Shown here piece by piece: positions 7,763 to 32,239 of a stretch of 64,000 bases of DNA. Position 1 is the first letter of the stretch. Every line of letters starts with the position of its first letter. Made by a program: the position numbers and the translations under genes. The notes beneath the pieces are model-generated. The model did no database searches and was not told the origin of the DNA. It worked only from the letters and a program-made list of their open reading frames with translations. This DNA comes from Hygrocybe punicea (lineage: Eukaryota; Basidiomycota; Agaricomycetes; Agaricales; Hygrophoraceae): contig OY744469.1 of the NCBI GenBank assembly GCA_963556145.1, forward strand, positions 930,001 to 994,000, given 5' to 3'.

Positions 7763-10313
7763 CAACGCTCTCAATGTAACAGCATGTATGTCGTATCTTA
7801 TCTGTATGTCGTATCTTATCAATAGATCGTTATCGTTATCTACTTGATTATCCACTTGATTATCTAAGGCTGACCTGTTCGGAACCCAACTGCTGGTGCT
7901 GCTACTGCTGGCACTGGCAACTTAAAATGTATCGCAAAGGGACTCGTACAGGGGGTGTTTCCAAGCGGATCACTGTTGTGACCACTGCAAAGCGCCGGGA
8001 ACACCGAACTGTCTATTGCGCTGGAAGTCAGAGGAAGCAAATAGATTCTCAAGCAGCTGTACAGCAGTCAGCCCTTGCAGGTACATGTTATTCTAACGAC
8101 ACAGACTACGACTTGACACTGTATCCAGGTTTGAGCTACAAAGATTGCGAAGCTGTTGAAGAAATGGATGCAAGCATGTACGACCATGATGATTCCTGGG
8201 CTTTCAACTCCGTGCCGCTGGGAGAGGAGGCTTTTGATCTTAGCCACGCTGGAGGGGAACATAACAAATTTATGGATGTTGCCAACACACTGACAAGTTG
8301 GGCAGGCATGTAAGTTCCAATGCAAATGTAGATCCACAACCACTGATGTATCAATTCAAGTCAACGTCCAGATACCAGAGAACGCATAAATCGCATAAAT
8401 CGCCAGACGGCGCAATAGAATCTCCAAATTGACACTTTGGTTGATGCGTACTTGGAATATCACCTGCACAAGGGTGAAGATCAGCGAGCAGCAGTCCTAC
8501 CTGACGAGGAAACAACTGACAGGCTACATATTGACATTGTCGACATATTCGGTAAGATGCTACCTTATGTCCATCATACAAGGTAGCTAACCACTCAACA
8601 GATCGCAAGTCATCAAGTTTTGGTATTTTACCAAAGGATGAATATCCGAATGTTACGCTAGTTCGAAATGGATACATTGGGTCGTCCCCGCTTTACCCGA
8701 CAGTCGCTATCTCATTGTGCACCCTAGCCACATATTGACAAACCCATCAGGTGTGTCCCAGGTATTCCCTGCAATCCGAGGCTCGAAAGCTCTGTCACCT
8801 GCATAGTGTGAGTTATACTTCGGTTTGCTGCTCCTCAGTTAACCAACTATAAATAGATTCCTTACCAGCGCTACTTATGTGACCAGTTATCTGTCGCATA
8901 TGATATCTATCTCCAGATCCTTTGACAAGTTGACAACCATATCAAAGTCGTTCTTGGTCAAAATGAACCAAACTGGCAGCTGAAAAATGTGTGCCTGCCA
9001 TGCTTTTACAAGCTTCAGGGCGAGCCACCACTTGAACATTCATTTCATTGCGAAATGGATGGAAACAATTCAGCAAAGTGTTCTGATGCTTTGATATGGA
9101 AAAAAGAGGAATTACCAGACTCACGAAGGTTGAGCAGTGACCGTTGGCTCTCCCGTGAGGAAGTGGATCTATTTAAGGATGAGGTTAGAACCTGAACCGT
9201 ACAATCAGTAAGTTCGACTTTAGAAGAATTTTGTTCCGTTTTAATCTTGTTCTGTAGGGACAGACAACAAAACATAGTGATGATGACGAATTCGGTGCTG
9301 ATTGGGAGGTTGTCCCTGAGGATGATCCCGTTGCAATATGTATCTCGCGGTGGAAAAATGCAAGCCCGGAACAGTGAAAACGAATGTTCAGCATGTTTTC
9401 TGAGACTGGTATCTTCATTACTGCTTGCCGTCATGGGTTTGTGCTTCTTGTATGTGACATGGTTAGAAGTGGAGAACTGTGAGTCTCTGCTGTTTCATTG
9501 ATAGCTGTTCAAGCTCAGATTTACTGTTTCAGCACTAAATACCCACTTGCGATGGCCAATAAGCTTATGGGGAAGACATTGGTTGTGGGTATGACATCGG
9601 CTGCACATTCTCAAAGACACTTGATGCCAGCTCTCTTGGCCCCGCTGCTCGTGAAAAGCATTTTCGTTGCTTTGTTGGAGCATTTCACGGCCATGCTCAC
9701 AATCGAGCTTGCCAGCTTGAATGGCTTCCTCTCCATGTTAAAGGAGCTGGCCGTTCAGATTTTGAGGGATGCGAACGAGTGTTTTCTGCTTCAGATGAAC
9801 TGGCACCAAGCATTCGGCATGCAAGTCTATTCCATTTCCACCAGGCACTTCTCGAACACTTCGGTTTCTGGGATGAAGATAAGTATGCTCAGCTGGGTAA
9901 GTGGTATAAAGTATTTTGCTCTTCAATTTTGGGTAACAACTATGATCAGGGAGGCATTTATTGAATCATTACAATGAAGCCCTTGAAATCACCACTGGTA
10001 TGGCAAGACAATTGAATGGCATTCAATCTGAATTAAATATCTCCGATGAGGACTTTGAGGAATATCTGTGGCAGGAAAAAGAATATCTGCAAGGCTTGAA
10101 GAATAAACCTCCTGAGGAAACCCTTCAATTTGTATGTTGAATGACTACAAGAACTGGAAAATGCATGGTAAGTTGCAACCATCTTGCAAGAGTATGAATT
10201 GTCAATGCTTTTCAGTATCAAATGGGATCAAGCCCGTGCTGCAGCAAGCTTTATTGTGCAGACGCTGGCAACAGTTGGAATCTGTGCAGCTCAGACAAAA
10301 GCCAATAGAGCGG

Positions 10314-17431: not shown

Positions 17432-17952
17432 TACATCGGTATTTACTGCACTCGGAAAAAGGAGTTGTTGGGCATCGGAATGATGGTCCTGATCTGGCTG
17501 GGAAGATACAAGACATGGATTGAAGCTTGGGATTGATCGCCAATAGCTGTGAAGACGAGAAAAGTATGGAAACTCTTGCTGGATTTTGGCTGAAAAGAAC
17601 GCGTTCAATTCTACTTTGGGCCAATAATAATGAGATACTTACCACCAAGATTTTGGTTCTCCGGATTTGCCAGGAGCTACTCCCATGTCAAGCCAGAACC
17701 AGTAGCGCGAAGCAGTGCAATTTTTTCACGATATTTCTTCTTGAGACTGTGATTGATAACATCAGTGCAAATAAAAATCAATAAACAGGTAAAATGTACG
17801 TAGTGATACGATCTGCCACCGATTTTGTGAACTTGCCTGGGTGTTCATGGTAAAGCCGAACATAATCAGGATTTTGGTCATTGGTAAAGACATATTGCGT
17901 GATCATTGCATGGTACGTCGACTTCTGCATTTTTCCAACATCCTGACAGTGG
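17432..17952 (-). pseudogene. SANT/Myb-like gene, 3' portion, split by the Plavaka-type element
   Basis: On the minus strand the frame directly after the transposon reads MQKSTYHAMITQYVFTNDQ and HPGKFTKSVADRI. A 51-nt intron follows, then LKKKYREKIALLRATGSGL, and after an intron of about 58 nt EFPYFSRLHSYWRSIPSFN. This is the C-terminal half of a family of short SANT/Myb-like proteins common in mushroom genomes, some near transposons; function unknown. A TAG (complement 17677-17679, one step from CAG) interrupts it. The 5' half lies at 32,013-32,239. Confidence 0.6.
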
Positions 17953-17968
17953 CATCAGGAAAAACACT
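17953..17968 (+). repeat. Left terminal inverted repeat of the Plavaka-type element
   Basis: CATCAGGAAAAACACT, preceded by the GG duplication. Confidence 0.85.
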
Positions 17969-18353
17969 TCTGGTCCCATGGGGTCCTGGGAAATCCCAAA
18001 TTTCCCAGGGTCACCAGGGAGTGTCACAGAGCTCCACAGAGCATCTTAGAGCTTCTCAGAGCATCTTAGAAGTTCAGAATCACGCTTGACCTAGAAATAC
18101 TAAATAAACATATGCCAGGTGCTTGGAGGCATACTGATTAGGATTGTTTAACATCTTATGGAGTATATTATGCCACACAATGTATTTATCTACCTTAGCT
18201 GTTTGCAATGCCAGTGGCCCCACTGTTGCCTCACCGCCTGCTGGAAATTACAACATTCTAATACTATTGCTACCATATAGTCTTGTATGCATACATGTTA
18301 TGCCAGTTATTAACAAAGAATGTTGAACATTTATCTAGAACATCATGAGTGGT

Positions 18354-21300
18354 TCATGTTCTTTCTACGCACCGTCCAAAAGTAGGCATTAACATGCAAC
18401 TTTGACGTATGCTGGTCAATGGAATGATAGAACCAGCAGGACTTCCATCAGTATGGTAAGACCTCTTGATAGAGTACATGTTGTGGTTTTGTTCTGCAGC
18501 AGGCTTCGTCCTCGTGTACCATTCAATATACGCCAAAGGCATCCGGGGCCAAAATGATGGTGATGGTCCAAGGCCATAATCTAATGATGAGGGAAGTGTG
18601 AAAATGACTCGGAGACGTCCTATCCTTGTTCCTAGCATTTTCGTGGTCAACAGAAGTCAATGTGGTAGAAATGGGGGCAGACCTTCAAGGCCAGTGGATT
18701 CTGCATCATCTGTGTGCAGGATGACAGCAGTGTCAAATCGACTAGGCCTGTTCTTCATTGCAGGAGCAGCTTTGAGGACGTCACATTCTTCCTCACTGTC
18801 TTCAAGACTGGGAGGATGAAATTTGAACGTATGGTAGACGTCAAGCCTCTGGAATGGTAGGGTATGCAATGCAGTGATCCGAGAAGGTGCTGGGTGGGGT
18901 GCGAGACGATTTAGATAGTCCTTGAGAGCAGTAGAAAGTCCAGGAGCTGAATGTTGTTTTTCGATATCAGAAATTAAACGTTGAGGCTGAGTCGGATATT
19001 TAGGAAGTGAGATTGCTTTTCCAGCCACATTGCATGAAAGTGACTTGGATGGTGGATTGTCAGCAATATGTTCATTTTCTCTCCAGGAAATGTAATTTTG
19101 GAAAGTAAACATCTTCTCTTGACGCGAAAGCCATTTTATCATCTGGGGAAACTCGTCACGTTGGTTTGATGCCCGCCACCCCTCCTTCGCGAAATCAATG
19201 TGGAGACGTTCGAACATTTCTGTGTTATAATTGTCAGATGTGCCAAGATACTTGATGGACTGGATGTAGTGGATGAGGCAATGGAATTTGGGGATGTTAA
19301 GATCCTGGCGTATGCCTGTCTCGACGAAGTATGATTTGTGACGATGAAAGGCATCTAAGGCATCTTGCATGTAACCAAGGGTAATGTTGTCATGGGTGCT
19401 GTATTGGGCAAGGTAAATGAAATCGAGAAGAGAACGGCATGCGATGATAGCTTTCTGGGGCATGACACCAATAAGACAGCCTAGGAGAATCTTTGCCATG
19501 TTTTTCCTCTCTGTGCCAGATATTTGGGAGAGTGCAGATATACCATTTTTGAAATGACGCAATCCATACGCAGGTGGGAGACAACGTATACGGCAGTCCA
19601 GTTCGTTAGGTCCTATGGTCCGTTTACACCAGTTTGTGAGATGTTTGAAAACACCCTGGTAGAGTTGATGAAGAACGTCAGGAGTGATAGCAAGATGAAT
19701 GTCGGTGTGTGGAAACCCTGCCCAGAATGGAGCGTACACACTCCCAGATACCCCCCTGTCCATGCAATACTTGTGGAACTGTGATTTTGTCGTTGACGTC
19801 TCCTTTGCCTTATCTACGACACCCAATGTCCACTGACCTGTCCTGTGGGCGAATGGACCAGGATCCTGAAGCTTGTCGGAAGGGCATTGGCATTTAGGGC
19901 ATGTCCCATACTTAGAGCAAGATACAAGGCATTGTTCTGGGTAGTCGGCGACATAGCATGCCAGGATTGGGTATACCTTCCTTACAAAGCCCTCGCCGCC
20001 CGTCATCTCAACACCATTCTTCCCTGCATCCATCAAAGGAGCCAGAATCGTTCGCATGGACTCGTGGAACAATCGTTGATTGCGCGCTCTATGCTCCTGC
20101 TGTGTTAACTGGTCACGACAAATTTTGTCCACCGACAGGTAACCAATTAGAACACATGCATGCTGCGAGGGTTTACGACGAATGGCTTTGGGTATATTTC
20201 CCAATGTCAGATAGACAGGATAAGCAGATTTGCCTCCAGTGAACTTCGTAAGTTGAGTCTTGTCAGTCGCAATAATCACAGGTGCCAGTGTGGAGCCCAC
20301 TGGGAGGCGGTTCTACAATTCTATCAGAAAGATAACGTATGGTTGAGGATCATGGCTAGTGCACCTGAACTACATGCCACCATGAACCCGTCCACATCTC
20401 AGAGTAGACCCTATTGTCGCGATTAGAATCGGAAAACACTTTCTTCGGCTGGTAAACCATATATTTTGATAGAGTTGGATCGCCCCAAAGACACTTTATA
20501 GCCTCTAGCACACTCCTGAACCTGATGATATGCTTCTCGCCAGGGCGATCTTTGAAAGAGAGGCATTTCGTTGTCCACCTTCCTGCCCGTTCAGGAATAT
20601 CGTCCACAATCTGATGTAGCGCCCTTGTATTTCCAAATGAAAGCCCTAGCTTATCCTTGACCTTAGACATGCAAATCAGACGTGTCATATTCTTCAGAAA
20701 GTCAGAAAACATACACCAGGAATTGAGAGAAGTCTGTCAAATGCCTTGTTCCCTGGGCTGTCCTTGATTACCCAATTAGCAACACGCCAGTCGAGCTCTG
20801 AGGCAAAAGGATAGAATGATTCACCGCCAATCTGGTCCCCCATCAGGTCATCGCCGTCACTATCACATTGTCCATCAAACTGCTTCCTCCATCGCTCATG
20901 CAGGTTTTCATTCATTCTTTTCACCTTAGCAGCATTGTCGTACACATCCTCCACCCTATTATCATCCACGTCGTCCAGAACCCTGTGCTGCATGCGTCTA
21001 GCGGCTGCAGCAAGAGTGGATGGTCCTGGCCCTGCTTCTCCAAGCTCATCGTCGTTGGTTGTAGGCAGTGTGGAAACCATGGGAATGAAGTCAAAGAGAT
21101 CGCCGTCATCTTCCTCGATATCATCCATAATGCCTTGCGGATCTTCATCCACATCCATTCCACCCAATTCACCTTCTCTCACTAGCCCCTCATCATCAAT
21201 AACCTGCATGTCCCCACCCTCTCCTTCTAAATCTAAAGGCGCAAGTTCTGCCAACTTGCCACGACGATACCAGGAGCATGTACGTGCAGTTCGTAGATGA

Positions 21301-21371
21301 GATGTGCAGCCTCTCTTGGTCTTGAAGGACCTATTACAAACAGGGCATGCAAGGTCGTCCAGAACATCCAT
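18354..21371 (-). pseudogene. Plavaka transposase with N-terminal C2H2 finger, one premature stop
   Basis: Exon 1 (21371-20715) carries a C2H2 finger (CPVCNRSFKTKRGCTSHLRT), an acidic linker, FYPFASELDWRVANWVI and DRLLSIPG. A 53-nt intron (20662-20714) leads to VKDKLGLSFGNTRALHQIVD and YSEMWTGSWWHV. A 52-nt intron then leads to LAPVIIATDKTQLTKFTGG, YPVYLTLGNIPKAIRR, GFVRKVYPILACYVADYPEQ, CPKC, ITPDVLHQLYQGVFKHL and MFERLHIDFAKEGWRASN, the conserved Plavaka core. The frame runs to a TGA at complement 18657-18659 (CGA-to-TGA type), after which the same frame continues with RIGRLRVIFTLP and PLAYIEWYT to a natural end at 18354. Otherwise it looks intact, so it was recently active or is read through. 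Confidence 0.9.
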
Positions 21372-21648
21372 GATAATGCAGATACTGGATAGATGTTGTA
21401 GCTTGAGATCCAGGAGGTTCAGGCTTTGTGAGTTGCGACCTTCAGTTAGGAAAGATCAGATTACGAGATAGGGTGCACGTGCCCCACTGATTACGGACAA
21501 TAAGGACAGCATACAACGTTAGAGACGAATAGCCTGTCATGCTACAAGAGAACTAGACAGATAAAAGGTGGAGTCAGAAAACCAACAAGCTACAAAAGGT
21601 TGAACAGGGATAACATGTATACCTAATGGGGAATTGCAACAGCGAACA

Positions 21649-23527
21649 TCACAACAATTGAGAATGTCCAATGTCCAACACCTGCCTCGCTGTCTGATGC
21701 TCAGTGCATTCTCTAATGCCCATGCAGTCGTGGAGAATAGCATGTGAGAAGTCGAGTATTTGAACGCCGCCTGTTGTTGATAAACTAATATTGTCAGGCC
21801 GTATGTCCTGATGGCTGACGCCGGCGGTATGAATGGTCTGTATCATGGTCCAAAGATCAGATCTAAATGTAAACCAAATGGGGAGAACAACATCAATAAT
21901 ATGTCCACCCAACAGAATAGAAACCATGTACCGTTGGCAGATCAAAAGCTCGGAAAATAAGGAGATAGCTTCCCCTGCGTAACGCATAACGAGCACGTTA
22001 ACATTTTCGCCAATAAATAGGCCATACACTATGGGTATTGCAGTGCCCTGCAGTGCTGAGAGGGTCGCATACATTTTGGCTTCGTGGCGTAGAAGTGCTT
22101 GTGACGACTCTTGCATAGCAACTTTTGCAACGATGTCCTCTGTTAGCACGTTGCCGAAGTGCCCTCTGAACACATTCCCAACAGACCCACTTCCCAGAAA
22201 CGTCGTCATACGTAGTTCGCAGCATGGTGGGTCTTTTAGATGCCTCAGAAGTGACTGTAGAAAAGTGGATATAATTTCCACACAGTGGACAATGGCTGGG
22301 ACGATGGCTTGGAACCGAAGAACTGCAACGCTGGAGTCAAAAGTACATGAACTAAGCTCAGTTTGGCACGGAGGATCTGCCACTTCTTGGCGGCTCAGCT
22401 CGTAGATGGCTAGATCGAAGCGCTCCAGATCGAATGTCAGCTGCAAAGTTTCCGACTAAAGGTGTTCAGAATTAGAAGACGCTGAGAAACAGAAGCAGCT
22501 GACCTTGGAGAGTATGCTTCCACTGGAAAATGTTGTCAAGGGTACAGCAGAAAGCGTATTAGAACCAGCATCCTGAGAGCTATTCTTTGTGGCCAGTTTC
22601 GCTGCCAACCGTGTTCGGGACAACGGCGTATGCACATCAATGGCTGGGATTTCAAGGTGTTGCGGAGGCTTGACGTTGCCTGCACGCAAAAGGCAGAAAA
22701 CCATGATAAGCATAAAGGGCAGTGTGGAGTTGAGGGTGGAAAGAATGTCGGAGCAAATGAGGCTGTGCAGCTTGGTCCCTGGGATTGGACAAAGTGTGAA
22801 GAGCATATAATGATCTCCACCAAATAGAACTGCATATGGGATCTTAGTTGCTCCTGACAGCATAGATATGCCAATCTATATAATGATATGGTGATGATGA
22901 ATGCCGAGGAGCAATACAAGATTGAGACCCAAGCACCTTGAAGATAATCGATCGATGTCCTGTTTCAGTGGGACCCAGCTCTAAAATTGTAGAATTTTGG
23001 CCCAGGTGTAATATATTCTCAGCGTGATATGAGAACGCAGACCAACTCTTGAACTCAATGTGGAGCTGGGGAGGAGCATCCTGACAAGGACGGTAGACGG
23101 CATCTGGTGTCTGATTATAAACTGTGTACTGAACGATGGCCTCTGGATGTGTCTGATTTGCATCCACAGCTTCGACAGCGTGGCATATCGGGATGAAGGC
23201 TTGACTGAAGAAGTTACTAGTGGTAGGTTCGTGGCCCAGAGGAAAATTCCTGAGGGACATACCCAGACTAGCAATAGTTTGGATGAGAATCATGGAAGGT
23301 TCAAGATGTTGGCCTGGTGCAGTTTGAAGGTAGATTCCAAGGGATTCCACCATGCGTGTCGCCAAGGATTGATCATGAAATATGAAAGCTGGATGACCTT
23401 CCTGATTCGGCTGCGGGATACTGGGATTGTACGGCGCTGTGGAGGTTGATGTGGGGGTCTTTCTAAATTCATGTTCAGGGGGTAGAGGAAAGCGCATGGC
23501 AGGGATGAAGGTCTGTAGAGTTGCCAT
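21649..23527 (-). CDS. Protein-kinase-like gene carried by the Plavaka-type element
   Basis: Four exons: 23527-22937, 22875-22504, 22455-21932 and 21862-21649, with introns of 61, 48 and 69 nt that keep one frame. The N-terminal 300 residues match a basidiomycete-specific leader (IEFKSWSAFSYHAENILHLG and LFTLCPIPG). The C-terminal part has kinase features: a Gly-rich loop GSGSVGNVFRGH, VAKVAMQ (lysine), a conserved Glu helix, the catalytic loop HQDIRPDNI in place of HRDLKPEN, and DFSHA in place of DFG. The family is known to me as fungal kinase-like proteins; altered motifs leave catalytic activity uncertain. It is a passenger between two transposon genes. Confidence 0.75.
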
Positions 23528-24767
23528 TAGGTTGCGGGTACTAACGGATTGATCACGACTCAGATGACGCTCTCTTGAAGTTGTCCTTTCAATTATTTAC
23601 AGGGGGATGACTGATAGGATAAACTGAAGTGCTGTCTGTGCCGTCAATCTACGTAGCTTGGATACCACCCCTGCCCTTTGCCACAAATCGGAGATGCGAG
23701 CGGTGGCTGTTAGCGAACGTAATGTTACAGCTAAAACTGAGCAAGATGATGACATATAGAACAAATCCTGACCCAGCAGGGGGAAATTCCTAGGATGTAG
23801 TGTAGCGTGTCAGATATAGACACGAACGAACACGAACGAACACGATAATGGGGCACTCACAAAAAAGTCAAAACGAAAAAAACCTCAGTTTACGGAGCGG
23901 CAGTCCCCCGAGCGAGCAAGGGTCGACGGATCGCCGCAGGACCTAAGATGACGATAGTGGCGACAAAAGCCCAGCCAAAGAAAAGTATTGCTACAAGACC
24001 CAGCTTTGTTGTTGGAAAGTGAAGAAAAAGAAGGTTGAAAAGGTGAAGGGCAATGACGAACGACCTTTTGTTGGTTTTTGGGGTTTTCTAACTTGAAACA
24101 GGCCAGACGTACCACATGGCATTGGCAACATTGCCTGTCTGTTTGATTGCACCTGCATGCCAGGGCCGTGAGTCACGGAGGCAGCAAAATAACCCAATGT
24201 AGGCCCATCGCAGTCCCCGAGGCTTGTATTGTGTTGGCTACCAGGAGGGGAAAAAAACAGGCGATAATGAGAGTTCGAGGATAACGAGGGTTCGAGGATA
24301 ACGAGGGTTCGAGGATAACGAGGGTTCAAGGATAATGAGAGAGGATAACGAGAGTTCAAGGATAGGTTTTCTAAACTGTATTACTGAAACAATTAGGAAA
24401 CTTTACCCCATCAAAAGGGTATGTACGCACCAGCAGCATAAAACGATAGAGAATAATGAAAGCAAACTAGCCTCCGTAGCTTGAAAAGGGGACAATAGGT
24501 CGGACATGATGAGGAATCTAATCGGACATCGGCGTGCTGTGCTAGTGGGAGACTCAGCTCATTGAAGGGGGGTGGTAGACAAAGCTGTAATTACTGAAAC
24601 AATTAGAACAAAAGAAAGAAACTTTATCCCATGAAAAGGGTATGTACGCACCAGCAGCATAAAAACTTAGGTACGTTGTTTCCTGAAAAGGTGTCTATGT
24701 TACAGCGATAACATGGACACCTTTTTTGGACAACTAACCGGAACCGTCCGGTACTTCAACACGCTTC
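23528..24767. other. Non-coding interval with short repeats
   Basis: It separates the divergent kinase-like and TET/JBP genes and so should hold their promoters. A direct repeat of about 65 bp containing GGGTATGTACGCACCAGCAG occurs at 24,376-24,443 and 24,590-24,663. No gene was recognised. Confidence 0.55.
24269..24364 (+). repeat. Minisatellite, 17-bp unit
   Basis: About five imperfect copies of GTTCGAGGATAACGAGG. Confidence 0.85.
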
Positions 24768-25841
24768 ATGCAGCGTATTCTGCTGGATCTCTCACAAAAG
24801 GAGGCTCTGTGCCTGCTTAACTACCTGGATCAGTGCGCTGGCAGTCTTCCACTTGACATTTTAACCCTTTATAAGAAAATAGAGTCTCACTCACGAGCAT
24901 CCGCAACTCCCTCCCTCGCGTATCCGGCTCCCCTTGCTACTCCCTCCCTGGCGTATCTGGCTCCCCTTGCTACTCCTCAACTTGAAACACCACTGAGCTC
25001 TTTAATTCCTGGATCTGCATGTAGCTCTCATCTCAGTCAGCAAGACATTGATCATGGGGCTCAGGCCCAAACTGCTGGAGATATGGTGCGTACATTCATT
25101 CAACTGAGTCATTCCTTCTTGACTTGAACTGGCACCAGCCGAACACTTCCTTCCCCAGAAACCTTGATGCCAACCCTGTGAGACTCAGCGGGGACGTTGC
25201 TAATCTCACGAACTTGAACGCGAATGCGAATGTCGTGAACTTGAACCCAAATGATGTTAAAGCCATCTTACCTGCATCACAAAACCAATCGGAACGATCT
25301 GCGCTACGATGGTCGAAACGAGTTGGGGACCGGCGGGACCTGGATCCTTACGGCGGGGTGGGCATGGCTGCGGCGGGTGGTGGGGTGGGCATGGCTGCAG
25401 CAGGCCATTGCAAATGCGGAGGTGTGAAGCATAGGAAAAAGGCAAAACCAAGGAAAGGGAAGAAAAAGCAGGCCAAGGCTGACAAAAGCGAAGGTGAAGG
25501 TTGGGAGGTTATGGATGAGCCTGCTTGCGCCGTAGGAGAGCGGGCTGCTGAGGCTGTCTCAAACTTAGCACAAGGTGCTTTGAGCAATATTTTGCATCCA
25601 CTAACCCAAAGGTGGATTGAGTCAATGAAGACGATGGTGAAGGGGCAGAAATGGATCAACGAGAACGGTGCTTTCGTGACAAACTCCTTGCAGTCACTTG
25701 TGGTTCGATGCAAACGGAGCCTTGAAATGGCTGCAGGGTTAGAATTTGTGACGATGATTAATATGCTGCAGCTGGCGGCAAAGGCAGACAGGTACGTCCT
25801 GTTGCTATCTTTTACTGTTCTCAAAGGAATTTCGGCAGCGT

Positions 25842-26735
25842 TGTAGAGGGTCGACGTCCCTCTGAGTCTGTATCATTGATATATCACGAATCCGGACCAA
25901 CCCGATGCCGCCATTCAACTTGCATTCGAACCCGACGTAACCCGACGTGACGTGACGTGACGTGACCCGACGTGACCGACGTAACCCGACACATGCCGCT
26001 TTGTGACGGCCGCTTTTGGGCTAAATCCGGCAGCCTCAAACGCCTCGGAGTTCCAATTCCAGGAGATGGATCTCTTCGGACTCAATCCCCGACTTCGGAT
26101 TTACGTTATTTATGTATCCCCTCGTCCTTTCGGAGATATGTAGGACTTTCTAGATCTTTTCCTTGCATATTCATTTTCCCCTCCATTTCCTGTCTTCGTT
26201 GCTTTGCAACCCCCCTTTCCACATCCCCATTCCAACCTTTCTTTGTAGCTTACCATTGGCCGAAGTAGACATGTCCGAAAGTAGATTACTGTTTCCTGTA
26301 CTATAAAAACGGTCCCCGATGACCGTACAAAAAAAACATACCCTTAGTCCCCATTTCCCTTTAGTCAGAATCGCCTTTTAATCCCTTCAAATGCTCGTCC
26401 ATGTAGACCCTTAGCTTTTTATAGTCCACTTCATCGTCTTTATCGTTGTTTCCGTATATTCATTCATTGTTTCCGACCCGACCCGACCTGACCCGCTGTA
26501 CCCGACATCGTCGGCATCATCGGGTTCTTTATTATTTGTCTGTTTTTACTCCGTTCATCACCGGATTCGTCATTATTAGTCCAGTTTTACGTGGCGGCTT
26601 TACTTTTACTAACATTCCCTTCCTTTTACTACTATTCCTGACACTGACTTATCCAGTCACTTCTACGCTGACACCCTCTGGTTAGGATCTTATTTCTTTA
26701 TATAGTTCCAAAGCCACCAAGAACCCGCATCTACA
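25842..26735 (+). mobile_element. Solo LTR, family L2, in the TET/JBP gene
   Basis: 894 bp, starting TGTAGAGGG and ending CATCTACA, flanked by GCGT (25838-25841 and 26736-26739). The left part contains a CGTGA-type tandem run (25,935-25,985). The same LTR recurs at 33,948, 34,841, 55,078 and 17,328. No internal region remains, so it is a recombination scar. Confidence 0.9.
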
Positions 26736-26785
26736 GCGTTATGCAGATCAATGGCCTAAAATCAGTGGATGCTGTCTTTCGTGAC

Positions 26786-27429
26786 TATGGCCGGTCAGGG
26801 GTACACCCGCAGTGCTCTGGGGCTGTACTTGGACCCGTACCCGTCACGGGTACGTACCCGAGGCCAAAAGTACGGGTATGGCACGGGTTTTGCAGGGGTA
26901 CAGGAAGAAACATGCAAAATACCCCATTTTTACCTGTTTTTGGTGGTTTTTATGGTTATTGTGGACAGAATACTGGCCGGATCCCTTTAGTGTAAAGGAA
27001 CACAATGTTTAGAATACTGTGGGGAGTGTTGAGAGCATTTTTACATATTTTTACAAGCAATGATTCTCATTATATCCCTCAAAAACATGCAAAATACCCC
27101 ATTTTTACCTGTTTTTGGTGGTTTTTATGGTTATTGTGGACGGAATACTGGTCGGATCCCTTTAGTGTAAAGGAGCACAATGTTCACAATACTGTGGGGA
27201 GTGTTGAGAGCATTTTTACATATTTTTACAAGCAATGATTCTCATTATATCCCTCAAAAATAGCGAAAAATACCCCAAAAATTGAGTTTTTGATGTTTCT
27301 TCTCCCAAAAAAAATACAGCCCATACCCGTGTGGGTACTGCGGGTATTCTGAGGCTGGACTCGTACCCTTAACCCGTGGTACCCGTACTTTTAACCCCTG
27401 GGGGTATTGCATACCCTTGACCTGCCCTA
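26786..27429 (+). mobile_element. hAT-like MITE, copy 1
   Basis: 644 bp with ends TATGGCCGGTCAGGGGTA and (reverse complement) TAGGGCAGGTCAAGGGTA. TTCGTGAC flanks both sides (26778-26785 and 27430-27437). Inside, a segment of about 175 bp with CCCCATTTTTACCTG and GTGTAAAGGA is directly duplicated. No coding capacity. A near-identical copy lies at 50,608. Confidence 0.92.
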
Positions 27430-29614
27430 TTCGTGACTGCATAGCTGGCATGGATGGTGCGCCTCAGCCATCTACATTTCGGAAATGGGTCGGAGTCGGC
27501 ATGAAATATGCCTCGATCGCCGGGGCAGGTATGAGGCACACCCTATCTATCTCACTGTTGTTGGTCTCTAACATCATATCATAGGAACTATCTACTTGCT
27601 GATGGTTATAGCGGCCAAAAAAAAACGGGTTCAGATTGGCTGTATGAATGTTGATGAGATTTCAGCTGTATGTAACGCACTTCGCTGGCCTAACCCAGGT
27701 GAGTCTTCTTGATCTCAGTGATTCTTGCTCTAACTGTTATCTTAGATATGGACATGGGACAGGATATAATCGGTCGCCTGATTCCGTTGATTGACTACCT
27801 ACGTCGTCGGATTCCCTTGACGATGTCGACCATGTTCTCCCGTTCACTTCTCAAGGACTTAGGTTTAACTGGAGACATAGACTGTGGCAACTTGGACGAT
27901 TCAGACAAATTTTTTGACAGCATTAGAAGGAAGTAAGTGCTTCATTTTTATTGCGATTTGTATATTAAGGTCACCAGTTCTTTTGTGTCATTGACTAGAA
28001 ACCGGCCGATCTGGGCAGAGTGCCTGGAGCCTCTGGAACCAGCAGATGACCCTGTGTCCCTTCATGTTATCAATCAGAATCTTCTCATGTCCCATGCGTC
28101 ATCAAGCTGTTCTGATATGTCCACGCGTCCGCCATCACCGTTCTCAGAATCTGGGAGTGACAGTGATATCCAGAATTGTGACGACAGGCCGCTTGACAGT
28201 GACAATGACATGCCAGCCCCTCCTCCTACTGATACATTTCGGTTTCCTGATCGCAAATGGCGGGACTACATGGTACTTGACACCCGATTTGACATAGATG
28301 CTGAGCAGAATAGGAAGATACCTTATCCATGTGATGATGATGAGAGGAGTGAATGGACATATATGCAAAGGGCTTATGCAAGCCGTGCACGCGTGCCGTC
28401 GGACAGTATTGACTTTGCCCGCATGGTATGGTGTTTTGAATCTGATATTAGAGCTGCATATTTGATGTTCTTTTGTTAGGTATCGGAGCTCTATGATGAC
28501 GACGGCGTAAAGAAGGAAGGTAGTTATGTGGTTATGGATGAGAAAACTTTTGATCAGTCTGTGTGTTCTTGAGAATTCCCAGTCTACTAACTAATGTACA
28601 TTTCCTTACAGGAAAGAGGTCCGACTTAATTGCTTGGATGGCTCAGTAAATGTTTTTGTCTGGGGAGATATGCCGCTGCAGATGCGTTCCTCATTGGAAT
28701 GCAACATACGTAACGCTTTATTAGTTGAAAGTGGCTCTTCTCTCGTTTATACCGATAGTTCTGCCACTCCAAAAGGGCACAAATTTCCGGCGATCCACTG
28801 CGACATGTACATGCGGAACGGAACACGAGTGAGTAGCACCTGTTTTGCAGGGCCCCAATTATATAAAGGAACTAACACCTCCAACTAGGGAGAAGGTGCT
28901 CCGCCTGATGTGCATCCTCACTTCCTTAGACGCAAAGGATGCTCCAAGACCAACTATTATCAACTAGTCCCGCGTGTTTCAAAGGAACTCATGGAACACA
29001 CCAGGGAGTATGATAACCTTTGCAATTCATTTGAGGAGTTCTTTCTGTGGGTTGAAGAAAAGGTACATGCCAGGTTTACATTGTTTTATGTTATTGATAT
29101 ATGCTAATGTAATCATTTCAGTTACTTGAACGGCTTCTTGATGTTTATGAAGACTTGGCCATATTTGCTGATGTTCTCCCAGGGAAGGCGGCTTCGCCTG
29201 TTCATCCATTTGGCGGGTTTGTTCTCAATATCAATGTTGTCACATGCTGCCACCGTGACGTCAAGGACCTACGGGCATGCCTAGTTCTTGTCATAGGTGA
29301 ACATGTAGGTGGAGAGCTGTGCTTGCTGGAGCCAGGCTTAGTGTTACGTTTGCGAAACGGAGACATGGCACTTTTCCCCTCCGGTAGGATTACTCACTTT
29401 AATCTCCACTATATGGGTATTAGAGCATCTATTGTTCTACATTCTGATCATGCTGGGAAGATGTGGGCTGAGGATAGGAATGGTTGGATGGGCCATGGAT
29501 ACATGTCATAGAAAATAGTGCTAACCGAGACTTGTTTGTTTGTTTATATGTGCCACGTAATCGTTGATATTCATTCTTTGCTCTTTCCACCACCGTCTTC
29601 CTTTGTATCTTGTC

Positions 29615-31638
29615 ATGGCAAAGAAACGTGGCACCTCTAGGACTTCCAAGGGGTCATCTTCAACCAATGGGAAGAAGCCCAGCTCAGTGACAGCCTCAGC
29701 TCCCACCTCAAAGACTCGTTCAAAATCAAAGCCCAAAAGCAAAGGTAATCAAGGTGGCTCTGAGATTGAACCTTCTGCTTCCTTATCCACTGGTGGTCTG
29801 TCTGCTGCTGAAGAGAAGCTATTGATGGAGCTTTCTGCCAAGAGAAAAGCCAACAGAGCAGCCGCGTTGCAGGAGCAGCAGGATGAACGTAAGCCATATT
29901 AATTTCAGACTTTATTTTAATTGGCCACCACTGCAGTTGTTCGTAAACGTAACGCTGAGATGATGGCGGCTGAGGAGGCTGATAACACTGACGATTCCTC
30001 CAATGGCAACAACAACACCTCTAAAAGGCGTAAAAGGACTGTAATCTTAGATGAAGATGAAGAAGATCTGGATGCAATATTCGATGATGTCCCAGAGATG
30101 GACAATGGTGATGATAGTGAGTTGTTATACTAACCACTACGGCAAATTATGATGCTCACTTAATCTGCTTCCAGGCGACCAGGATCATCTTGATGACAAT
30201 ATACCTAATGAGGATGACTTAGATGATGGTCCAAAGGATGATGATTTGGGAAATGGGGTGTGCACTTTTTCCCCCTCATCATTAGCGGTGCCTAGCTGAT
30301 AATAAGTTACAGATTAGTATCCAGGATGAAGACGGGATCAAGCCAACTAAAAGGAGCAAGCAATCTACTCGTCGCTCTGCATCCATTGCTGCAGGATCCA
30401 TTACATCGATCATGTCAGGATGATGAGATAAGCTCAGTAAGAATGACTTTACTCCTAGGAGTTTTCGTCTGGCTACTGCAAGCAAATCTACCGCAAGGGA
30501 GCGCATTGCATTGTCTGATGCATTTCCCAATGATAAGGATAAGTTTGTCTTGGAGTCCATTCAGTACACTGCAAAGGACAGTGATAGTTTTCAAAGTACT
30601 CTAGACAGGGTGCAGAATAACGATGATCTTCAAGACAGTCTTATGGAATATGTTTGAGTTTATTTTGTCGTTTTCTGCTATTATATGGAGCTGATCTTAT
30701 CTTAGGTGGGTTATGCGATCACCGGTCTACGTGGCGATCTGAAGGCAAAAGCGAAGGCTGGTATTGCAGGCTACTTTGGAATTCCTGGCCAGATGTCGAA
30801 GGCAGATATAGAGGAGGCAGCACGTTGGCTTTTACAGGGATGCAAGTTTGCACGTGGTGAAGTTGATGTTATGGTATATGGCCCAGGTATCTATAACCTG
30901 CTATACGATACTAACCTAGAATTGTTGAAACAGAAACGTACGGTTGTCAACAATGAGCCATTCAGTCATGCAATCATCGGTGACATGATCAGGAATCAGT
31001 GGTTTGGAAAGGGCAAGGCTGACATTCAAGCTTACCACAAAATGATGGAGCTGAAGAAGATCCATGAGGAAATCATTATCCTAGTAGTAACTGCGGTGTG
31101 TCTCCTTCACTTATGCTGTGCTCAAATACATTTTCATCTGTTGGCAGATTGAAAATGCACTGATGGAGTGGGCAAGCGGGTCGCACCTCAATGTGCAATT
31201 CAGCCATGAAGCAGCAAGCTTAAGGTGATTTATTTTATAGACATTATGTCCATGTCTAATATCTCCCTTTTTATAGATATGCTCATCATCGTTCAACATG
31301 GAATACATTGAAGGCAAAGTCACCGACCTGGACTGCAAAGAAGCAAGCGTCTTTGTTTCTTACTATAAAATCGTATAGATCTGACCGTACTCTTTTAGGA
31401 ACAATGTCAAGAATGCTCCGATTCTCGATGATGCCATTGAAAACATGGACTTGATGGACGTTGACTTTGACCAGCTGGAGCAGTCTGCAAGGTAGACACT
31501 ATGCAAGTTATTGTTCTTTGTATAAACTATCGATGTCTGATTGACTTTTACAGCTACAGGCTCAATTTCATAACCTTGTCAGTCTATTCACCACCCCTCT
31601 ACGTCTACGTCTCCATTTCCATTTTACTGTCAACTTGA
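29615..31638 (+). pseudogene. DUF6532-like gene with two adjacent in-frame TGA codons
   Basis: The ATG at 29615 opens 104 bp after the TET/JBP stop. A Lys/Ser-rich, probably nuclear, N-terminus (MAKKRGTSRTSKGSSS, KRRKR) and an acidic region are followed by VVGYAITGLRGDLKAKAKAG, FARGEVDVMVYGP, EEIIILVVTAIENALMEWAS and LRYAHHRSTWNTLK. The arrangement fits DUF6532, a domain of unknown function frequent in Agaricomycete genomes. About eight introns keep frame to TGA 31636-31638. At 30421-30426 two TGA codons interrupt the frame; they could come from CGA-CGA, or be skipped with a 24-nt GTCAGG...CTCAG segment. Same strand and close spacing suggest co-carriage with TET/JBP. Confidence 0.6.
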
Positions 31639-31799
31639 ATAGCCCATTTGTGTTTCTTTTGCATTTCTTTTGCATTTCTTTTGCATTTCACACCAGCTAT
31701 TACCGCTCATTTATGTATATTTTTAATGCTATTTGGAGTATTTTGAACATAACCAGAGCAATTCAGAGCACTGTAGAACAGCAATAAATCAATACATAT

Positions 31800-32010
31800 A
31801 CATCTAAGAGCTCTTTATGACGCTCTGAGGACCTTCCTCAGAGTACCTCAGAGTGTCCCAGAACACTCTCAATGCAAAATAGCCAGCCACTGTGCTTTCA
31901 GACCGTTCTAGGTCACTCTGAGAACTCTGGTGCTCTGAGCACTCTGACACACTCTAACACACTCTGACACACTCCAAGAGTGTCTCAGAGCTATAGTGTT
32001 TTTCCTGATG
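31800..32010 (-). repeat. Right terminal and subterminal repeats of the Plavaka-type element
   Basis: More than ten variants of ACTCTGA/CTCAGAGT occur in 200 bp, ending in the inverted copy of the 16-bp terminus. Such arrays are usual transposase-binding regions in CACTA-like elements (family knowledge). Confidence 0.8.
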
Positions 32011-32012
32011 GG

Positions 32013-32239
32013 CCCTCAGCGCTGGCATCTTGGGCTGAATCGGAGAAAAGCATGTGTCATTCCCTGGGGTATTGATCCAACCAGTCGATGAGCCTGGAAG
32101 TTCTGGATGGGTCAGACCACGAGATCTTAAATGCAGTCTGCCTCTGCTTTCCTTCAGGGGCCATGCAGGGCCGTTTGGCGGGTGAGGATGGAGGTGTATT
32201 ATCGATGAAGGACCTCTTGCATTTTTTCAACTTGGCCAT
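32013..32239 (-). pseudogene. SANT/Myb-like gene, 5' portion
   Basis: The start MAKLKKCKRSFID is followed by PPSSPAKRP, a nuclear-signal-like stretch, and the helix block ISWSDPSRTSRLIDWLDQYP, then LFSDSAQDASAEG. A TGA at complement 32057-32059 (one step from CGA) follows YPRE. The ATG lies inside the 5-bp duplication ATGGC of the solo LTR at 32,240, so the LTR is inserted at the start codon. The right end of the Plavaka-type element cuts the gene after SAEG. Confidence 0.6.

What the first reader, a model, noticed from the sequence alone, without database searches (positions are those of the whole stretch)
17953..32010. A 14 kb Plavaka-type transposon that carries a TET/JBP DNA-oxidising enzyme, a kinase-like gene and a DUF6532-like gene
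Seen: a perfect 16-bp inverted repeat at both ends, a GG duplication, subterminal repeat arrays, a Plavaka transposase, and a gene with TET/JBP signature residues, all within these ends. Excising it rejoins a SANT-like ORF in frame. Known: fungal TET/JBP genes have been linked to KDZ-class transposons. Inference: here the enzyme travels with a different superfamily, which could let an element demethylate or re-mark its own DNA, with the kinase and DUF6532 genes as further modules.
Basis: partly seen in the sequence, partly recalled or inferred. Interest (0 to 1): 0.92.

Follow-up and report, generated by a model that had tools for sequence, protein, structure and literature searches.

The report
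Transposons sharing a DNA-demethylase gene pair
In the genome of what is likely a mushroom-type fungus, a multi-copy jumping gene (a Plavaka transposon) carries a TET-family gene whose enzyme is predicted to remove DNA methylation, and the same kinase-plus-TET gene pair also sits in an unrelated jumping gene of the Tc1/mariner type, so the pair likely passes between transposons and would help them escape silencing.

Summary
The element is real. Its 16-bp inverted ends and GG duplication are exact; 11 copies in the genome have both ends, 11 of 11 hold the TET gene and 10 of 11 the Plavaka transposase. Target duplications of 2 bp match in 8 of 9 copies read; two paralogous empty sites exist. The uninterrupted unit is about 12.5 kb; the window's 14 kb includes two nested insertions, one breaking its TET gene.

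What differs: this TET has HxD, not the HxE reported for the type that Plavaka carries, and lacks the two CcTET residues of the other mushroom type.

The main new result lies outside the window. The divergent kinase-TET gene pair also sits in a 9.9-kb Tc1/mariner-type element (10 copies with both ends), a carrier not named in that paper. Its TET is closer to that of a sister Plavaka family than the two Plavaka TETs are to each other (support 100/99), so the pair likely crossed superfamilies. TET is under purifying selection; copies differ mostly by C-to-T at CpG, a methylation scar. Enzyme activity is untested.

The parts
17951..17952 (.). left copy of the 2-bp target duplication (GG)
   Evidence: sequence; matching 2-bp duplications in 8 of 9 copies read; single GG in two empty paralogs
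17953..17968 (+). left terminal inverted repeat CATCAGGAAAAACACT
   Evidence: copies start here genome-wide
18028..18062 (+). left subterminal repeats, 10-bp spacing
   Evidence: D8
18657..21455 (-). Plavaka transposase gene (main exon 18660-20312, further exons 20359-20736 and 20697-21455 with a C2H2-like motif)
   Evidence: Pfam Plavaka 9.2e-87 and 2.2e-18, DUF6830 3.7e-5 just under cut-off, C2H2 weak at 0.0052; main exon open in 4 of 5 copies aligned
21652..23527 (-). protein-kinase-like gene, divergent from TET
   Evidence: Pfam Pkinase 2.3e-7 on the exon, 1e-6 on a spliced model, both just below the curated cut-off; homologous genes in Plavaka family B and in the Tc1/mariner-type family C
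24768..25795 (+). N-terminal exons of the TET gene (approximate ends)
   Evidence: similarity by eye to Artomyces P0002/P0003 and DNA match to family C, 71% over 304 bp
25843..26740 (.). nested insertion 1 with its right target copy; 7-bp direct repeats CAGCGTT at 25836-25842 and 26734-26740; lies in a predicted intron
   Evidence: absent at this place from 8 of 8 other copies aligned
26741..26785 (+). remnant of the TET exon between the two nested insertions
   Evidence: the 37 bp found at this place in other copies
26786..27437 (.). nested insertion 2 with its right target copy; 8-bp direct repeats TTCGTGAC at 26778-26785 and 27430-27437; interrupts a predicted TET exon
   Evidence: another copy of the inserted sequence in C1 at 98%
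27602..29511 (+). catalytic (C-terminal) part of the TET/JBP gene; exons 27602-27698, 27746-27932, 27978-28425, 28480-28556, 28612-28828, 28889-29062, 29122-29511 (529 aa open); HRD at residues 444-446 and H492
   Evidence: all 6 introns keep GT and AG in 9 of 9 copies
29615..31495 (+). DUF6532 gene (approximate ends)
   Evidence: Pfam DUF6532 6.1e-15, 4.1e-32 spliced
31940..31977 (+). right subterminal repeats, 10-bp spacing
   Evidence: D12
31995..32010 (-). right terminal inverted repeat
   Evidence: copies end here genome-wide
32011..32012 (.). right copy of the 2-bp target duplication (GG)
   Evidence: empty paralogs

Best explanation
A PlavakaB-type DNA transposon of about 12.5 kb, seen here as a 14-kb copy with two nested insertions, carries a divergent kinase-TET gene pair that likely passes between unrelated transposon superfamilies, and its TET is predicted to oxidise 5-methylcytosine so that carriers would escape methylation-based silencing. 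Shown: ends, 2-bp target duplications, empty sites, multi-copy co-mobility of transposase and TET; the same kinase-TET pair in a 9.9-kb Tc1/mariner-type element with long inverted ends; closer kinship of the Tc1/mariner TET to the TET of Plavaka family B than of A to B; purifying selection on TET; TET fold in a homolog; CpG C-to-T scars and C5-methyltransferase domains in the same genome. Inferred: the Plavaka transposase moves the element by cut and paste through the CATCA ends; TET acts on DNA of its own carrier; the kinase acts in the same pathway (its target is unknown); the gene pair moved from a Plavaka of lineage B into a Tc1/mariner element.
Against: No activity or expression data. Pfam Tet_JBP scores the window protein under its cut-off. 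In family A no copy of the five aligned over both blocks has a wholly open TET gene: window (nested insertion), C34_368 and C39_1459 (a stop each), C39_4292 (a stop in the N-terminal exon), C36_5404 (20 bp missing in the N-terminal exon); in the C-terminal part 3 of 9 copies are free of stops. In family C 8 of 13 loci have six open TET exons and 6 of 13 have TET and transposase segments both open. The CpG scar shows that carrying TET did not keep these copies unmethylated, and it is not special to them: TET-free nested insertions and the flanking host repeat show CpG transitions as 0.35-0.46 of differences, against 0.59-0.72 in A and C, with ages not matched. The tree's bootstrap had not settled (0.989), several rows are short, and only three carriers are known. 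Family B transposase could not be fetched, so its divergence from A at silent sites is untested. The ends of family C fit TA duplication inside TTAA in 5 of 5 copies but equally an inverted repeat that begins with TTA and no duplication.
Confidence: 0.62

Rival explanations
1. TET is passenger cargo: it was captured by Plavaka and by the Tc1/mariner element by chance and does nothing for their mobility; the elements spread because of their transposases alone.
For: Stops and indels in TET in most family A copies; CpG decay goes on despite TET; many Tc1/mariner relatives of the family C transposase have no TET match beside them in the lists.
Against: dN/dS 0.07-0.16 between families A, B and C and splice sites kept in 9 of 9 copies; kinase and TET kept together in three families and two superfamilies; 16 of 18 family B transposase loci keep a TET in the same arrangement (compared by hand).
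Confidence: 0.2
2. The kinase-TET pair was not exchanged; an ancient element carried Plavaka and Tc1/mariner parts together, and families lost one or the other.
For: Same gene order and orientation in A, B and C.
Against: Family C has its own long inverted ends unlike CATCA, no match to the Plavaka region or DUF6532 in the copy read, and its TET nests with B, not outside A and B.
Confidence: 0.1
3. The enzyme writes rather than erases: like CMD1 or JBP it makes a modified base that marks the element's own DNA (for example its subterminal repeats) for its transposase.
Against: NgTET1, CcTET and TET2 match better than CMD1; no evidence of a modified base here.
Confidence: 0.08

Closest known systems
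TET+ PlavakaB transposons of Agaricus bisporus and Gymnopus confluens (Kojima 2025, PMC12730594; parts 1-4 of 7 of the text, legends and word finds read)
   Same: Plavaka transposase, CATCA..TGATG ends, 2-bp duplications, TET/JBP gene inside
   Different: he assigns the TET carried by Plavaka to the PE type with HxE; here HxD. His main text has the word kinase only for the IS3EU alpha-kinase and does not contain DUF6532, mariner or Tc1; the supplement was not readable
TET+ KDZ transposons (Kyakuja, Zisupton) with AG-type, CcTET-like TET
   Same: TET inside a multi-copy fungal DNA transposon; such TETs are present in this genome too
   Different: other transposase; CcTET Gly331 and Asp337 positions hold D and V in this type
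TET+ IS3EU of rust fungi with an alpha-kinase (Kojima 2025)
   Same: TET together with a kinase gene in one transposon
   Different: alpha-kinase there; Pkinase-like here; other transposase superfamily
Tc1/mariner transposons of fungi
   Same: family C transposase (DDE_3), ends consistent with TA duplication
   Different: about 9.9 kb with inverted ends of at least 396 bp and a kinase-TET pair; ordinary Tc1/mariner elements are much shorter (recalled)
NgTET1, human TET2
   Different: transposon-borne; long N-terminal part of unknown function; sequence identity about 14%

Membership tests
Plavaka (PlavakaB) | Plavaka transposase domain (PF18759) | tested here: met
   9.2e-87, 291.7 bits, cut-off 26.3
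Plavaka (PlavakaB) | termini CATCA..TGATG | tested here: met
   feature as stated in PMC12730594
Plavaka (PlavakaB) | target duplication of 2 or 3 bp | tested here: met
   2 bp in 8 of 9 copies
Plavaka (PlavakaB) | C(2)C and H(3-4)H motifs between catalytic residues; place in the PlavakaB clade | not tested
   no reference transposase tree was available
TET/JBP dioxygenase | Pfam Tet_JBP over cut-off | tested here: inconclusive
   window protein 17.4 bits against 34.9; 16 of 28 homologs carry PF12851 in the database
TET/JBP dioxygenase | HxD...H iron site and 2OG arginine on a TET fold | tested here: met
   invariant H444, D446, H492, R501; homolog model nearest NgTET1, CcTET and TET2
TET/JBP dioxygenase | oxidises 5mC | not testable with these tools
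   needs an assay
PE-type TET (Kojima) | HxE instead of HxD | tested here: not met
   HxD in 5 of 5 and 17 of 17 sequences, one of them in both sets
AG-type TET (Kojima) | Gly/Ser at CcTET 331 and Asp at 337 | tested here: not met
   D and V at these places by counting from HRD; the CcTET-like copy L072 has HRDTGG
PU-type TET (Kojima) | residues shown in his Figure 7 | not tested
   figure not held
Tc1/mariner (family C) | DDE_3 transposase | tested here: met
   32.1 and 35.0 bits, cut-off 28.6
Tc1/mariner (family C) | TA target duplication | tested here: inconclusive
   TTA/TAA at both ends in 5 of 5 copies fits TA inside TTAA, but no empty site was read

The most novel reading that the evidence does not exclude
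A kinase-TET gene pair is a mobile anti-silencing cassette that jumps between transposon superfamilies: in this genome it serves two Plavaka families and a 10-kb Tc1/mariner-type element, with a TET of a fourth fungal transposon type (HxD with an acid at +5) that none of the three named types covers.
Probability: 0.5. Interest if true: 0.76.

Novelty: new variant of a known kind. Interest (0 to 1): 0.6.

Why it matters
If transposons of unrelated superfamilies trade the same kinase-TET pair, removal of host DNA methylation is a function worth stealing, and the kinase becomes a prime suspect for a partner of TET in fungi. The multi-copy elements with CpG scars give a natural system to ask whether a transposon can demethylate itself in cis, which the 2025 survey only proposed.

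Tried and rejected
First TET gene model with an intron inside the fifth coding stretch was rejected after comparison with family C and replaced. A KDZ carrier for family C was looked for: no KDZ match lies beside the family C TETs in the list shown (150 of 429 candidates scored, list cut). A Plavaka carrier for family C: none (79 of 576 candidates scored). Kinase homologs in the large protein set: none at E 0.001 among the 7996 candidates scored, so the kinase has no outgroup and no named family beyond Pkinase. The single-sequence PDB search with TET gave nothing; the first profile gave TET2 at E 0.047, the wider one a chance hit first and TET2 at 1.4. The family C transposase gave no PDB match by sequence. 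Nothing naming the species was found; nearest named TETs are from Artomyces, Russula, Schizophyllum, Mycena, Coprinellus and Armillaria. Paper searches. Those with the term 'tet jbp' (13, 64) cannot match TET/JBP, so they do not test absence; the top 15 of 59 papers were listed and the only one with JBP and mariner both (PMC12477816) has JBP only in its reference list. PMC13297926 (2026 review; word finds only) calls transposon-encoded TET functionally uncharacterised. Iyer 2014 is not held. I therefore claim only that no TET+ Tc1/mariner was seen in these searches. The statement that Plavaka family E (44% transposase) lacks TET rests on lists that are cut and was not followed.
Full report
Observation. 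The window holds a complete element at 17953-32010 with perfect 16-bp inverted ends and a GG duplication. In the 92.2-Mb assembly the left end recurs 13 times at 93% or more and the right end 13 times at 94% or more, window included, with sharp borders at the inverted repeat. Pairing ends by hand gives 11 both-ended copies: the window, C36:5404499, C39:4292957, C39:1459304, C34:368742, C35:1495217, C41:2988666, C34:5429048, C7:5431916, C33:2632872 and C8:4909737. TET matches lie inside 11 of 11 and Plavaka transposase matches inside 10 of 11. I aligned 9 other stretches; eight are both-ended copies and one (C1) holds only the left end. Matching 2-bp duplications stand in 8 of 9 both-ended copies read. 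Two paralogs of the flanking sequence are empty, 93% identical, with one GG.

Anatomy. Four copies without large insertions measure 12.50-12.53 kb. From left to right: Plavaka transposase (-), kinase-like gene (-), TET/JBP gene (+), DUF6532 gene (+). The ORF at 25.1-25.8 kb, which gave no Pfam match, is the N-terminal part of the TET gene, as shown by likeness to full-length Artomyces proteins (36% and 34% over 99% of the 5-member profile's first sequence for the C-terminal part; N-terminal likeness judged by eye) and to family C. In the window this gene is hit by two nested insertions: one with 7-bp repeats in a predicted intron, one with 8-bp repeats in a predicted exon. 8 of 8 other copies aligned there lack both.

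Is it TET? Pfam Tet_JBP scores only 17.4 bits (cut-off 34.9). A profile of families A-D and one Mycena protein finds 28 homologs, 16 with PF12851, and reaches human TET2 in the PDB at E 0.047. An AlphaFold2 model of the Artomyces homolog P0002 (mean pLDDT 58, blocks of 66-92 between residues 451 and 570) matches only TET/JBP or CMD1 chains in its first 26 Foldseek rows; on VIA-align NgTET1 18.7, CcTET 18.4 and TET2 17.4 stand above CMD1 13.0 and FTO 12.6. H, D and the later H are invariant, and so is a D five residues after the first H; one search aligns it to an asparagine of TET2, which with the matching acid of NgTET1 contacts the methylcytosine (recalled). This type differs from PE (HxE) and from AG (CcTET Gly331, Asp337) as defined by Kojima; the AG type exists in the same genome, 96 Pfam matches over the cut-off, not all of which were typed.

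Sister and unrelated carriers. Family B: 18 loci with a transposase at about 73-80% identity, fragments counted once per locus, 16 of which have a TET match in the same arrangement 6-17 kb away (compared by hand; lists cut). Family C: 15 loci with TET at 66-77% identity and no Plavaka beside them. The one read nearly whole (C8:4021360-4031254; about 0.8 kb near its left end was not read) has the kinase (-), TET (+) with its N-terminal part, and then a transposase with DDE_3 matches over the cut-off. Its ends are inverted repeats of at least 396 bp, 99.5% alike, found on both sides of TET in 10 of 15 loci at 9.7-11.3 kb. 13 of 14 loci share the TET-transposase stretch at 96.5% or more. Relatives of its transposase abound in the genome, many away from any listed TET match. 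Homology between C and the window stops at the kinase end on one side and the TET stop on the other: the shared unit is the divergent gene pair.

Exchange and selection. TET of C is closer to B (72.2%) than A is to B (65.7%); silent sites agree (pS 0.588 against 0.772); kinase DNA agrees (74.1% against 68.2%); the tree supports C with B and a metagenome relative at 100/99 (bootstrap not quite settled). Since A and B share a Plavaka transposase (73-80%, next relatives 47% or less), the simplest history is a move of the pair from a Plavaka of lineage B to a Tc1/mariner element; the direction is inferred. dN/dS of 0.07-0.16 shows constraint. Yet no family A copy of five aligned over both blocks has a wholly open TET; family C is fresher (TET exons open in 8 of 13, TET and transposase segments in 6 of 13, one of five transposase segments not located).

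Methylation. Among family A copies 217 of 256 (left block, 5 copies) and 237 of 295 (right block, 9 copies) C>T/G>A changes lie at CpG, in family C 193 of 263 (13 loci), against 13-17% expected. Other repeats here also show CpG transitions, 0.35-0.46 of differences against 0.59-0.72, but ages are not matched. C5-methyltransferase domains occur at four places. So the host likely methylates CpG in these elements, which gives TET a substrate; it also shows that TET did not keep them clean.

Known or new. TET+ Plavaka is known (PMC12730594; read: abstract, parts 1-4 of 7, legends, word finds). The HxD type on Plavaka, the kinase-TET pair and the Tc1/mariner-type carrier are not described in what I read there, and the words mariner and Tc1 do not occur in its main text. 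Its supplement could not be read. Verdict: new variant of a known kind.

Noticed in passing
window 9563-9874 (+): A KDZ transposase match (134.6 bits, 133-aa open frame) lies 8 kb left of the element.
   Followed up: no
genome-wide: 96 Tet_JBP matches over the cut-off; at least 17 lie about 2.5-4 kb from a KDZ transposase match, counted by eye, i.e. a large TET expansion of the CcTET kind.
   Followed up: partly
C1:9411941-9415614 and C2:8453230-8456903: Two Tet_JBP matches over the cut-off lie 2.6 kb from another Tc1/mariner-type transposase with the same spacing near contig ends; possibly one duplicated segment, possibly a second TET-mariner link.
   Followed up: no
L070, L071 and C2:3730066, C7:3098712, C33:3726666, C6:7971329: Family D: TET at 40-44% identity with a P0001-like N-terminal part, near-identical flanks in the two loci read; carrier unknown.
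   Followed up: partly
P0014 (Russula compacta): A predicted protein joins the TET type to DUF6532, the order seen in the window, so a like element probably exists in Russula.
   Followed up: no
window 25843-26740 and 26786-27437: Two short nested insertions with 7-bp and 8-bp direct repeats; related copies sit in C34_5428 (92%) and C1 (98%).
   Followed up: partly
window 17901-17952 and 32013-32058: The flanking host sequence is itself repeated: one search lists further matches to the left flank on C1, C6, C33, C39 and C40.
   Followed up: partly
genome, right-end matches at 76-88%: More than 20 further right ends without a matching left end suggest other, perhaps non-autonomous, relatives.
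   Followed up: no
C34:128275: The family C copy at C34:127263 is cut 1 kb after TET; its missing part appears 40 kb away at C34:169410-170427.
   Followed up: no
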